A stretch of 64,000 bases of DNA, taken from Candidatus Poribacteria bacterium (GTDB lineage: Bacteria; Poribacteria; WGA-4E; JAJDTR01). The notes beneath the pieces were generated by a model. That model was not told the origin of the DNA. It worked only from the letters and a program-made list of their open reading frames with translations, and searched no databases. This document shows, one piece after another, positions 15,818 through 63,480 of this stretch (position 1 is its first letter; the number at the start of each line of letters is the position of its first letter). The position numbers and the translations under genes were made by a program. Where the stretch lies: positions 89,082 to 153,081 of the forward strand of contig JAPPIK010000048.1 of the NCBI GenBank assembly GCA_028820655.1, given 5' to 3'.

Positions 15818-15886
15818 TCAACCGGATCCGAAAACCAACTGTGTGAGGAGCATCCCTCTGTGGGAGGGAATCAATGGAGCGGATAG

Positions 15887-15922
15887 ATCAACCGAGTGAA
15901 TAGCGAGGGCGATAGAGATCCC
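15887..15922 (+). repeat. AGCGAG dispersed mini-repeat, copy 1
   Basis: Matches the family pattern: ATCAA, CCGAGTGAATAGCGAGGG, then CGATAGAGATCC. A partial second copy of the 3' end (GCGATAGAGATCC) follows at 15926-15938. Confidence 0.75.
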
Positions 15923-16170
15923 ACTGCGATAGAGATCCCCCCGCTCCGATATATGAGGAACTCCCTAGCGGCATCGGAATTGCATTGATCGTCTAATGGT
16001 CGCACGTTTTTCGCTGACTAACAACCGGTTGGATAAGGATGGCGATAGCATATGCCGTGCGATAGAAATGTACTCATTGCTAGCGACTAAACACTGGCAA
16101 ACGAACAAATAAGGGAGTGGCAGCGACGCAAGTTAGAAGCGGCCATTCAATGGCAGCGACCTCCAAATCA

Positions 16171-16313: not shown

Positions 16314-16486
16314 GATAAGCTCGCGTCGCCTGGCCATATGTTGGGGACGTGATTTTGCTGCGAGATAAAAGTATGGCGTATTAAATTCGAGTTGTAGTCT
16401 ACCTATGCAGTCGTCTGGCAGTTCTCTCTACGGGTACCTGCTTGAGGTTGCGGGTGGGTAGTCATCAAGCAAATGGACAATGAGTG

Positions 16487-16522
16487 ATCAACCGGACGAT
16501 TAATGAGCGCGATAGAAATCCC
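16487..16522 (+). repeat. AGCGAG dispersed mini-repeat, copy 2 (diverged)
   Basis: ATCAACCGGACGATTAATG, then AGCGCGATAGAAATCCC. It stands upstream of the 16541-16678 element in the same order as copy 3 and its neighbour near 22.6 kb. Confidence 0.65.
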
Positions 16523-22560: not shown

Positions 22561-22768
22561 GTAACTGTTTAGTGCATCGTTTGGTTCGTAGTAGTAATCA
22601 AGCGACTGAATAGGGAGCGCGATAGAGATCCTATCATTGCACGTCTTTTCTGGGCATGTAAACCCCCGATTCGTCTGAATTAGCATTGTACTTCCTTACT
22701 CGGTACGTTCCCCGCCCCCTGCTCGGCCTGGATTGGCAAATCCAGACCGGTGTACTAAACAGTTACCA
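22561..22768. mobile_element. MITE-like element, family 2, copy B
   Basis: Ends are a 16-bp inverted repeat with one mismatch: GTAACTGTTTAGTGCA at the left (22561-22576) and TGTACTAAACAGTTAC at the right (22751-22766). Inside are an AGCGAG repeat (22598-22631) and a GGATTGGCAAATCC hairpin. The inner part matches 16541-16678. No coding capacity. Confidence 0.6.
22598..22631 (+). repeat. AGCGAG dispersed mini-repeat, copy 3
   Basis: TCAAGCGACTGAATAGGG, then AGCGCGATAGAGATCC; nested within the family 2 element. Confidence 0.8.
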
Positions 22769-30412: not shown

Positions 30413-30667
30413 GGGTTAGTCTCCGAAAAATCCCTTAGTTCAAAACGCGAACACATAGCACATTCTATTTTTTGGCGGTATCTCCGCATTCTACCTTCAT
30501 TTCATATTCAGGTCAACAGGAATCTCTAGGGTCCACGGTGTTAGGGCAGTGTGTCAGACAACGATTGAACTAAGTTCTGTTTCTCGGCTTCAAGCATGAA
30601 TACGAAGTGGAAACACCTGAATGGTCTTCTTGCTAAGAGTATATGTCATCGTTTCAAAGTAGTAGAA

Positions 30668-30772
30668 TCAAGCGAGTGGATAGCGAGCGCGGTAGAGATC
30701 CAGCAAGCGAGTGGATAGCGAGCGCGGTAGAGATCCAGCAAGCGAGTGGATAGCGAGCGCGGTAGAGATCCC
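30668..30772 (+). repeat. AGCGAG dispersed mini-repeat, three tandem copies
   Basis: Three consecutive 35-bp units, period exactly 35 (starts of AGCGAGTGGA at 30671, 30706 and 30741). The pattern is CAAGCGAGTGGATAGCGAG, then CGCGGTAGAGATCC. Only family member in tandem in this window. Confidence 0.9.
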
Positions 30773-41764: not shown

Positions 41765-41799
41765 GATCAGCGACTGAATAAGGAGTGCGATAGAGATCC
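41765..41799 (+). repeat. AGCGAG dispersed mini-repeat, copy in the isomerase/Gfo-Idh gap
   Basis: GATCAGCGACTGAATAAGGA, then GTGCGATAGAGATCC. Confidence 0.75.
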
Positions 41800-41866
41800 T
41801 CCGGCCATTAGCCAACACGGGTCGAGAGACCCAACCCCACTCGTCACTCTCCACTAATCACAGTAT

Positions 41867-61844: not shown

Positions 61845-62641
61845 ACTTGTGCTTCCTTTCTATGCGCTCTGACGTGACCACTCTATTTTAGGGGATAACT
61901 ATAAATAAAACGGAAAAACCAGGGAATTATATACAATAGTAACATTTCTACTGGAAATACAGTTTTTTAGTTGACAACACTATTGGAACATACAATAGAC
62001 ATCTTTCCAAAATGGATCTATGTGGTTACAGTAATCTTGGAGATTAGAATAACTACATCGTTTGGCAACTTGTCGAGGAGTATCTCAAGTTAACAATCGC
62101 GGCAATCACATTGGTAGCGCGCCATTATCCCTGGCGGTATAATTCATTCAGCAAGTAACACTACGTCTTTGAATCTATGACGGGCTTTGAGAAGGTGTTC
62201 CTTCGTAGTCTAGTTTTCACTCCAGCGGAGTGAAATGTCAATAGCATGCGATTCCTCCTAGCGTCTGTACTCCAGAGGAGTGCCATGTCAATAGAATCGT
62301 GATGCGTCCGATCTCCGCACTCCAGCGGAGTGCAATGTCGAGTATTACTTGAGAGCGCGCCATTATCCCTGTCGGAATAATTCATTCAGCAAGTAACACT
62401 ACGTCTTTGAATCTATGACGGGCTTTTAGAAGGTGTTCCTTCGTAGTCTAGTTTTCACTCCAGCGGAGTGAAATGTCAATAGCATGCGATTCCTCCTAGC
62501 GTCTGTACTCCAGAGGAGTGCCATGTCAATAGAATCGTGATGCGTCCGATCTCCGCACTCCAGCGGAGTGCAATGTCGAGTGTTACTTGGTAGCGCGCCA
62601 TTATCCCTGTCGAAATAATTCATTCAGCAAGCAACACTCTC

Positions 62642-62690
62642 GTACCGCAAACTGTTAGTTTGCGGATCACAATCTAACAGATTGTGGTAC
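62642..62690 (+). repeat. Double-palindrome repeat, copy 2
   Basis: 49 bp beginning GTACC and ending GGTAC. Palindromes CCGCAAACTGTTAGTTTGCG and CACAATCTAACAGATTGTG. Confidence 0.8.
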
Positions 62691-62970
62691 AGATGTCCTT
62701 CTCTAAGGCTGGTTCTGAAAGAGTGTTACTTGATAGCGCCCCATTATCCCTATCGGAATAATTCTTTCAGCAAGTAACTCTCCTTTTTCGCTCTATGGCA
62801 GGCGTTGAAAAAGCGTTCCTTCGTAGAAGGGTTTCACTCCAGAGGAGTGCCATGTCAATAGAATCGTGATGCGTCCGATCTCCGCACTCCAGCGGAGTGC
62901 AATGTCGAGTGTTACTTGGTAGCGCGCCATTATCCCTGTCGAAATAATTCATTCAGCAAGCAACACTCTC

Positions 62971-63019
62971 GTACCGCAAACTGTTAGTTTGCGGATCACA
63001 ATCTAACAGATTGTGGTAC
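62971..63019 (+). repeat. Double-palindrome repeat, copy 3
   Basis: Identical in sequence and length to copy 2, including the GTACC/GGTAC ends. Confidence 0.8.
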
Positions 63020-63176
63020 AGATTTCCTTCTCTAAGACTGGTTTTGAAAAAGTGTTACTTGATAGCGCGCCATTATCCCTGTCTGGATAATTCGTTCTGC
63101 AAGTCACACTGGTTTTTTCGCTCAATGACTAGCCGCGAAGAGTGTTCCTTCGTAGTCTGGTTTTCACTCCAGAGGA

Positions 63177-63212
63177 TCAAGCGACTGAATAAGGAGCGCG
63201 ATAGTAAATCCC
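63177..63212 (+). repeat. AGCGAG dispersed mini-repeat inserted in a hairpin repeat
   Basis: TCAAGCGACTGAATAAGGA, then GCGCGATAGTAAATCCC interrupts a hairpin copy: left flank CACTCCAGAGGA and right flank GTGAGATGTCAATAG. Removing it restores CACTCCAGAGGAGTG. This defines both ends of the mini-repeat. Confidence 0.85.
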
Positions 63213-63480
63213 GTGAGATGTCAATAGAACATGAATCCTCCCCGCGTCTGCACTCCAGCGGAGTGCAATGTCGAGTGTTTCTTGAGAGCGTGCCATTATC
63301 CCTATCGGAATAATTCTTTCAGCAAGCAACACGCGTCTTTGGATTTGTGACAGGCTTTGAGAAGGTGTTCCTTCGTGGTCTGGTTTTCACTCCAGCGGAG
63401 TGAAATGTCAATAGTACACGATTCCTCCCTGCGTCTGCACTCCAGCGGAGTGCAATGTCGAGTGTTACTTGATAGATTAT

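What the first reader, a model, noticed from the sequence alone, without database searches (positions are those of the whole stretch)
63177..63212. A 36-bp AGCGAG element inserted inside a hairpin repeat, showing recent mobility of a tiny dispersed element
Seen: between 63166 and 63228 the hairpin CACTCCAGAGGA/GTG is split by exactly the AGCGAG repeat; the flanks rejoin to the undisturbed form seen in other copies. Copies of the same 35-36 bp repeat lie at 15887, 16487, 22598, 30668 (three in tandem, period 35), 41765 and 63533. Inference: the repeat is a discrete unit that can move or be copied, not a shared gene fragment. It has no coding capacity, so it needs an enzyme elsewhere, for example a REP-associated tyrosine transposase.
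Basis: partly seen in the sequence, partly recalled or inferred. Interest (0 to 1): 0.78.

Follow-up and report, generated by a model that had tools for sequence, protein, structure and literature searches.

The report
Tiny self-nesting hairpin mobile element
In a genome from the Candidatus Poribacteria lineage, a non-coding 36-letter DNA unit, predicted to fold into a two-step hairpin, lies at hundreds of places and interrupts other repeats and copies of itself at sites that are uninterrupted elsewhere, so it is likely one of the smallest mobile elements known, probably moved by an enzyme made elsewhere in the genome.

Summary
At 63177-63212 exactly 36 bp interrupt the hairpin CACTCCAGAGGA|GTG; 8 of 11 sites with these flanks in 852 kb of this genome are uninterrupted. 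The unit is a genome-wide family: 367 matches against 5 reversed controls, found in 7 of 84 genomes of the phylum. New here: its variable positions are base pairs. The skeleton TCAA-NN-GA-NN-GRATA-NN-GA-NN-GCGATAG keeps two 2-bp helices around a GA/GA mismatch through compensatory changes (89% of cells paired against 60% shuffled; 0 control hits). Flanks rejoin in empty sites without target duplication, cleanly or with a CG dinucleotide or hairpin tip replaced. Many 23-bp series are nested insertions: the interrupted tail reappears behind the inner copy in 25 of 34 pairs, against 22 of 198 singles. Many hosts are GTAG-tagged REP hairpins, and RAYT transposases exist in the genome, but the unit is not concentrated at their genes; no reverse transcriptase passes the cut-off. 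Movement as single-stranded DNA by an HUH transposase is my best mechanism, unproved. Closest known: cyanobacterial small dispersed repeats and REPs. New variant of a known kind.

The parts
63177..63212 (+). the inserted 36-bp element TCAA...ATCCC
   Evidence: (51 bits), 69 and 78: flanks rejoin without a gap in paralogous sites
63178..63197 (+). hairpin core of the element: CAA, 2-bp helix, GA, 2-bp helix, GAATA loop, 2-bp helix, GA, 2-bp helix
   Evidence: Covariation
63165..63176 (+). 5' part of the interrupted host hairpin, CACTCCAGAGGA
   Evidence: 23 intact CACTCCAGNGGAGTG copies in 852 kb of own sequence
63213..63215 (+). 3' part of the interrupted host hairpin, GTG
62116..63480 (+). 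stretch of imperfect repeats (238- and 329-bp periods over 62116-63176) that carries the host hairpins
   Evidence: tandem repeats; many related stretches in G001
15887..15922 (+). copy of the element inserted in the loop of another copy
15871..15886 (+). 5' half of the interrupted outer copy, TCAATGGAGCGGATAG
15923..15939 (+). 3' remnant of the interrupted outer copy, ACTGCGATAGAGATCCC (one of its two outer stem pairs still forms)
16466..16522 (+). two modules 23 bp apart followed by one tail; degenerate
   Evidence: 20 bits for the second
22597..22632 (+). copy of the element after GTAGTAGTA; an identical 36-mer with matching flanks (left match only 35 bases) is in G001
30667..30772 (+). three copies in tandem, period 35
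41765..41800 (+). copy with one base lost in CAA
   Evidence: 37 bits
63534..63569 (+). copy of the CAGCAA...GCGGTAG variant
   Evidence: 43 bits

Best explanation
The 36-bp repeat is a non-coding unit present at hundreds of places, predicted from paired base changes to fold as a single strand into a two-step hairpin, and it is likely a mobile element moved in trans as single-stranded DNA by an HUH (Y1) transposase of the RAYT/IS200 kind. Shown by sequence: the family; the skeleton with two 2-bp helices around a GA/GA mismatch and a GRATA loop; structure marked on one strand (G.T cells outnumber A.C cells); insertion without target duplication, either clean (GGA|TCAA...CCC|G) or replacing the CG of G|CG|A or a hairpin tip; recurrent insertion at the same points of GTAG-tagged hairpins, of CACTCC-type hairpins and of its own loop and tail, mostly in one orientation (inverted copies inside copies also occur). 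Inferred: the folded strand is what moves, the enzyme is encoded elsewhere, and that enzyme is a Y1 HUH transposase acting on hairpin-forming single strands, for example during replication.
For: Family and copy number: 367 against 5; 205 hits above 16 bits in 852 kb, 0 in controls. Structure: 117 exact skeleton hits, 0 in the reversed control; T.G 51 against C.A 2 at the loop-closing pair; 73 distinct own sequences, 89% of cells paired against 60% shuffled; G001 87% against 60%; G004, another family: 19 distinct, 92% against 63%; the four pairs rank 1, 2, 3 and 6 by corrected mutual information. Movement. Nesting. Strand: GTAG lies within 25 nt upstream of 92 of 248 chains (downstream of 24), CTAC upstream of 14 (downstream of 14); background for GTAG 4.4%. 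Enzymes present: 7 Y1_Tnp matches in this genome; genes at C60, C61 (two) and C28 pass the NCBIfam RAYT cut-off; the two C61 RAYTs (L202, L203) have GTAGGAGCGAYCTCC-type hairpins in opposite orientation on their two sides, some of them carrying the element. No reverse transcriptase over the cut-off in either genus genome. The conserved AA/GC mismatch below the core resembles the AA/GC mismatch that E. coli RAYT needs (passage of PMC3733652).
Against: Elements are not enriched at RAYT-like genes: 16 modules in eleven stretches of 3.6-6.5 kb from four genomes, six of the eleven with none; in the six stretches of this genome 7 modules, 1.2 each, against 1.39 per 6.4 kb in its background (two of those six genes score below the RAYT cut-off). 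RAYT matches are in 72 of 84 genomes of the phylum (50 over the cut-off), the element in 7. Loss of 2-6 target bases, seen at many sites, is not a feature of Y1 transposition as I recall it. The element has no GTAG of its own. DNA folding parameters give the isolated 17-base cores no stable fold, RNA parameters only -1.8 and -1.1 kcal/mol. Chains of 3-4 modules mostly lack the tails that nesting predicts (6 of 7). Which of two states is ancestral is inferred from the many different hosts, not from an outgroup.
Confidence: 0.45

Rival explanations
1. The copies spread without a dedicated enzyme, by template switching or hairpin-driven repair during replication: a stalled fork at a palindrome copies a short hairpin from elsewhere and returns.
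For: Small and variable losses at the right junction, and hairpin tips replaced (GCAA, GCATC or CATCT, GTTGCC); inverted copies inside copies (read by eye, C4 301144 and C22 160792); pairs of elements 0.2-1 kb apart share a strand in 81% of 69, falling to about half beyond 60 kb.
Against: The same left junction (GGA|TCAA) and the same G|CG|A replacement recur with different element variants; the ends are nearly constant in 195 rows; such precision and the conserved unpaired bases point to recognition by a protein.
Confidence: 0.25
2. An RNA copy of the element inserts by an RNA route (ligation or reverse splicing followed by reverse transcription), as I recall was proposed for some cyanobacterial small dispersed repeats.
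For: G.T cells outnumber A.C cells on the displayed strand (38 to 14 and 40 to 16), the loop fits the GNR(N)A kind (recalled), and RNA parameters fold the core where DNA parameters do not.
Against: No reverse transcriptase domain over the cut-off in the two genus genomes: G000 none, G001 one match at 24.3 bits against a cut-off of 29.6 (the genomes are 95% and 92% complete). Orientation to flanking genes is not biased to one transcribed strand. G.T pairs also form in single-stranded DNA.
Confidence: 0.12
3. The unit is a conserved cis-acting RNA or protein-binding motif kept by selection, spread by gene conversion between similar repeats rather than by its own mobility.
For: Strong compensatory changes; conserved unpaired bases.
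Against: It sits in unrelated hosts (GTAG hairpins, CACTCC hairpins, itself, an IS1634 transposase gene); no consistent place relative to genes: upstream/downstream gene strands (-,-) 74, (+,+) 62, (-,+) 35, (+,-) 26. Most sites compared differ between two genomes of one genus: of 50 own chains with both flanks placed on one G001 contig, 34 have no module there; among the 11 tight alignments 9 are empty (two of these are probably false module calls) and 2 are shared.
Confidence: 0.08
4. Copies travel only as passengers of larger mobile elements (REPs or IS), not on their own.
For: GTAG hairpins host many copies; an IS1634-family transposase frame carries a copy, with a related copy in G001.
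Against: REPs and other copies are found with and without the element while the rest of the repeat is unchanged (GTAGGA|GCGATCTCC, AATAG|CG|AAGG).
Confidence: 0.1

Closest known systems
Small dispersed repeats of cyanobacteria (SDR families; Elhai et al. 2008, Genome Res 18:1484)
   Same: As I recall its abstract (the paper is not held): very small (21-27 nt) mobile repeats, several with a shared secondary structure supported by compensatory changes, some nested in themselves. PMC4390886 (passage) says that SDR5 inserts precisely between the third and fourth base of HIP1 (GCGATCGC); the unit here also enters GCGA.
   Different: Other phylum; 36 nt; here CG of GCGA is replaced or GGA|G is split; REP hairpins as hosts. 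My model finds no match in 80 genomes of the order of Crocosphaera, so no sequence kinship is shown.
GTAG-tagged REP elements and their RAYT transposases (passages of PMC3733652, PMC8266576 and PMC3116915)
   Same: High-copy, intergenic, strand-specific hairpin with a mismatch in the stem (AA/GC next to the core, as named for E. coli REP); RAYT genes in the genome; lies downstream of GTAG in 92 of 248 chains.
   Different: No GTAG of its own, stems of only 2+2 bp around a GA/GA mismatch, inserts into REPs and into itself, not concentrated at RAYT genes.
IS200/IS605-family ends (Y1 HUH transposition)
   Same: Single-strand hairpin, no target duplication, strand preference; IS200-type genes over the NCBIfam cut-off are in G001.
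   Different: No gene, only one hairpin, target bases often lost; no cleavage site shown.
MITEs
   Same: Short, non-autonomous, dispersed.
   Different: No terminal inverted repeats of usual length and no target duplication at the sites examined.
Rickettsia palindromic elements (RPE; mentioned in the passages of PMC3733652)
   Same: Can sit in frame inside a gene (IS1634 transposase).
   Different: Only one such gene examined; most copies are intergenic; different structure.

Membership tests
Cyanobacterial small dispersed repeats (SDR) | sequence kinship with the cyanobacterial families | tested here: inconclusive
   Covariance model R1: 0 of 80 genomes of the order of Crocosphaera at E<=0.01 and 0 in the genome of L066 at E<=1; genomes unnamed, strict filters, and the SDR sequences themselves were not at hand
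Cyanobacterial small dispersed repeats (SDR) | tens of nt long, structured with compensatory changes (recalled) | tested here: met
Cyanobacterial small dispersed repeats (SDR) | nested insertion in itself (recalled) | tested here: met
Cyanobacterial small dispersed repeats (SDR) | insertion between bases 3 and 4 of GCGATCGC (SDR5) | tested here: not met
   GCGA is used but its CG is lost, or GGA|G is split
GTAG REP | GTAG tetranucleotide at one end of the element | tested here: not met
   Where present GTAG belongs to the host; within 25 nt upstream of 92 of 248 chains
GTAG REP | palindromic stem of about 6-9 bp | tested here: not met
   Two 2-bp helices around GA/GA
GTAG REP | located at RAYT genes | tested here: not met
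   16 modules in eleven stretches, six with none; 7 in the six stretches of this genome against a background of 1.39 per 6.4 kb. GTAG hairpins themselves: 0-11 per stretch, 15 in the six of this genome, background 0.74
GTAG REP | cleaved as single strand by RAYT | not testable with these tools
   Biochemistry needed
IS200/IS605 derivative | no target duplication on insertion | tested here: met
   Clean pairs
IS200/IS605 derivative | no loss of target bases (recalled) | tested here: not met
   CG or hairpin tip missing at many filled sites
MITE | terminal inverted repeats and target duplication | tested here: not met
Curated RNA family | match to an Rfam model | tested here: not met
   0 matches at gathering threshold in window, L128, L191
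Retro-element | reverse transcriptase in the genome | tested here: not met
   None over cut-off in G000 or G001; G001 has one match below it

The most novel reading that the evidence does not exclude
A loop-homing hairpin: a 36-nt DNA element, perhaps the smallest site-specific mobile element in bacteria, whose only information is a fold (two 2-bp helices, tandem G.A, GRATA loop, AA/GC bulge) read as a single strand by a Y1 HUH or unknown recombinase, which pastes it into GCGA or GGA|G sites of other folded hairpins, including its own loop, building Russian-doll repeats.
Probability: 0.4. Interest if true: 0.82.

Novelty: new variant of a known kind. Interest (0 to 1): 0.66.

Why it matters
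As I understand the field, how repeats of a few tens of bases move has been open since small dispersed repeats and REPs were described. Here a single family offers hundreds of copies, a fold supported by compensatory changes in three genomes of two families, defined ends, recurrent target sites and nested copies that give the order of events. That makes the question testable: one can ask which protein binds this fold and cuts GCGA. It also shows that what looks like a 23-bp tandem repeat can be one unit inserted in another.

Tried and rejected
Folding energy: the isolated 36-mer is no more stable than shuffles (z -0.32, RNA); of two 17-base cores one has z -0.96 and the other -4.95; as DNA neither folds. 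Covariation, not energy, carries the structure. GC skew against element strand: by eye no relation, skew is weak. Rfam: nothing. Viral contigs: 0 exact skeleton matches. Reverse transcriptase: none over cut-off. RAYT co-occurrence across the phylum: uninformative, RAYT matches are nearly everywhere. Pairing across loop-nested inserts: 17 found, 13 kept as near, 65% against 46% shuffled, 50 of 2000 shuffles as high, so only modest support. Tail counting fails for chains of 3 and 4 modules (7 chains, 6 without an extra tail), which goes against a pure nesting account of long chains; modules whose tail my expression did not recognise were left out of that count. Tail nesting does not explain the 35-bp tandem arrays. 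Taxonomic counts rest, which scored only the best 87 candidates per genome and so gives floors.

Dropped rows: 208 of 244 joined-flank queries had a spanning match, but most (149 with net +16) are the filled locus matching itself; 33 have a net junction difference of -3 to +4 nt, of which 26 look like real empty sites to me by eye (some are near-duplicates of each other) and 7 match other copies or are unclear; the printed output was cut. Several clean pairs are paralogous repeats, not orthologues (short flanks), including that of 63177. In one search two of the tight EMPTY rows (C22 189342 and 191558) look to me like false module calls. The 60 rows of alignment A1 were hand-picked for diversity out of 157 distinct skeleton matches; the unpicked test is. 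The chain lists required some pairing, so no covariation claim rests on them except the ranking, which used them.

Full report
Where it is. The window is contig C13:89082-153081 of an unnamed 5.88-Mb, 61-contig genome, G000. Its one same-genus relative in the set, G001, has a 222,439-base contig C20 of the same length as JAJDTR010000164.1 of 'Candidatus Poribacteria bacterium isolate jk18x1bzbins.36', and several of its match positions agree with that record set, so the genome is from that lineage.

The observation. The 36 bases 63177-63212 stand between CACTCCAGAGGA and GTG. Of 11 places in 852 kb of own sequence with the same outer flanks, 8 have the plain hairpin spacing; the window and C22:72190 carry the element, and one carries unrelated sequence. 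In the 720 kb held of G001 there are 3 such places, 2 with the element, one of them with a second copy inside. So nearly the same point of this hairpin was hit several times by different versions of the unit, in the same orientation in all 4 cases. The closest G001 match to the window site (C167:56929) is a paralogous repeat; the interval that corresponds to this part of the window by its outer flanks (G001 C67, about 31.3-33.2 kb) is rearranged and, by eye, holds its own nested copies on the other strand.

A genome-wide family. A 19-base pattern with up to two mismatches has 367 matches in G000 against 5 for the reversed pattern, and 226 against 5 in G001. A weight matrix finds 205 hits above 16 bits in 852 kb and none in controls. 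If the 852 kb are typical, the whole genome holds on the order of a thousand modules (extrapolated).

It has a conserved fold. Fixing only CAA..GA..GRATA..GA and leaving eight positions free gives 117 hits in own sequence and none in the reversed control. The free positions pair: 89% of cells in 73 distinct own sequences against 60% after shuffling (maximum of 500 shuffles 67.5%), 87% against 60% in G001, and 92% against 63% in 19 distinct sequences of G004, a genome of another family whose commonest outer pair is C-G rather than G-C. In 195 distinct rows the four pairs rank 1, 2, 3 and 6 by corrected mutual information; ranks 4 and 5 are neighbouring tail positions affected by length variation. 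Nine outer and six inner fully Watson-Crick helices occur in own sequence. The fold is two base pairs, a GA/GA mismatch, two base pairs and a GRATA pentaloop; sheared G.A pairing and a GNR(N)A-like loop are my reading from general knowledge. G.T cells outnumber A.C cells 38 to 14 and 40 to 16, which marks the displayed strand as the folded one. Conserved AA and GC stand on the two sides just below the core; an AA/GC mismatch is named in PMC3733652 (passage) as needed for cleavage of E. coli REP by its RAYT.

The ends and the targets. Strong conservation stops at A(-2) and C(+33), 36 nt; G at -3 is still 70%. Empty and filled pairs fall into two kinds. In the first the unit is added with nothing lost: GTAGGA|GCGATCTCC (three near-identical G001 loci), CACTCCAGAGGA|GTG (window and others), CACCA|TGAGCG. 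In the second the CG of G|CG|A or G|CG|G, or a hairpin tip of 3-6 bases, is missing in the filled form: GGGG|CG|ACAGG, GGGG|CG|GAAGG, AATAG|CG|AAGG inside another copy, GGGTGC|GCAA|TGCGCACC, GGCGGG|GCATC|TTGCCCC. I saw no target duplication in these. PMC4390886 (passage) reports SDR5 of cyanobacteria entering GCG|ATCGC, a similar target.

Self-nesting. Modules directly preceded by a truncated module number 35 of 183 in own sequence, 38 of 150 in G001 and 11 of 48 in G004, against random rates of 0.8%, 0.5% and 0.1%; the truncation points cluster after GRATAG (16-17 nt) and after the first G of the tail (22 nt). The second kind gives the 23-bp series. If these are nested, the interrupted tail ATAGARATCCC must reappear behind the inner copy: at least one extra tail follows in 25 of 34 pairs, against 22 of 198 single modules; for the few longer chains it mostly does not (1 of 7). 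For the first kind, 13 cases keep a remnant of the outer copy close behind the inner one, among them window 15871-15939; the outer stem halves still pair in 65% of cells against 46% shuffled, modest support. Inverted copies inside copies also occur (C4 301144, C22 160792; by eye), so orientation is not fixed in every case.

Surroundings. Chains avoid genes (27 of 224 inside predicted ORFs against 80% coding) and show no fixed place relative to flanking genes, which speaks against a cis-regulatory role. GTAG lies within 25 nt upstream of 92 of 248 chains and downstream of 24, CTAC upstream of 14 and downstream of 14; background for GTAG 4.4%. GTAG hairpins are more frequent at RAYT-like genes (15 in six stretches of this genome, background 0.74 per 6.4 kb; up to 11 in 6.5 kb in G004), but the modules are not (7 in the six, background 1.39). 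Y1 genes: 7 in G000 and 4 in G001; RAYT by the NCBIfam cut-off at G000 C60, C61 (two) and C28 and at G001 C51, IS200 by cut-off at G001 C83 and C32 (the C61:117664 gene was scanned as a 92-aa piece and is covered from end to end of the model).

Distribution. The covariance model matches G000, G001, G004 and G014 in numbers (100, 90, 88 and 20, floors) and G068, G067 and G010 with 4, 2 and 1; the other 77 of 84 genomes of the phylum have none at E<=0.01. It has none in 80 genomes of the order of Crocosphaera and its skeleton none in viral contigs. Such patchiness fits a mobile element.

Mechanism. Shown: the fold by covariation, the strand, the ends, the targets, the nesting of pairs, the absence of a reverse transcriptase over cut-off. 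Inferred: a single strand is the moving form, and a Y1 HUH transposase the mover. For it speak the strand preference, the hairpin with a mismatch and the available enzymes; against it the lost target bases, the inverted nested copies and the missing link to RAYT genes. Template switching at hairpins is the strongest rival.

Literature. In the listings of my searches of the held library I saw no report of such a unit in Poribacteria; I read passages only, and the paper on cyanobacterial small dispersed repeats is not held and is cited from recall and from others' passages.

Noticed in passing
G000 C4:256026-257483 (L101:16026-17483): A 486-aa stop-to-stop frame of an IS1634-family transposase (NCBIfam 167.7 bits, cut-off 100) carries a copy of the element in frame on the opposite strand; a related copy lies in a decayed homologue in G001 C57.
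   Followed up: partly
L202, L203, L200, L256, L258: RAYT genes with GTAG- or GTGG-tagged hairpins around them, several distinct hairpin types per genome.
   Followed up: partly
window 62116-63480: Imperfect tandem segments of 238 and 329 bp with CACTCC hairpins; related stretches are scattered over dozens of G001 contigs.
   Followed up: no
G000 and G001 fetched contigs: Pairs of elements share a strand above chance up to about 20 kb (81% at 0.2-1 kb, 67% at 5-20 kb, 54% at 20-60 kb, 48% beyond); all copies in the window are on the + strand. Unexplained.
   Followed up: partly
element positions -1 and 23: T-A changes together with G-G (CAGCAA...GCGGTAG variants), which also creates a GTAG in the tail; seen in the 35-bp tandem arrays.
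   Followed up: no
G004 C10: In another family the same skeleton often has a GCGATAGTCTT tail and often sits in GTAGGCGGGG...CTTGCCCCGC hairpins.
   Followed up: no
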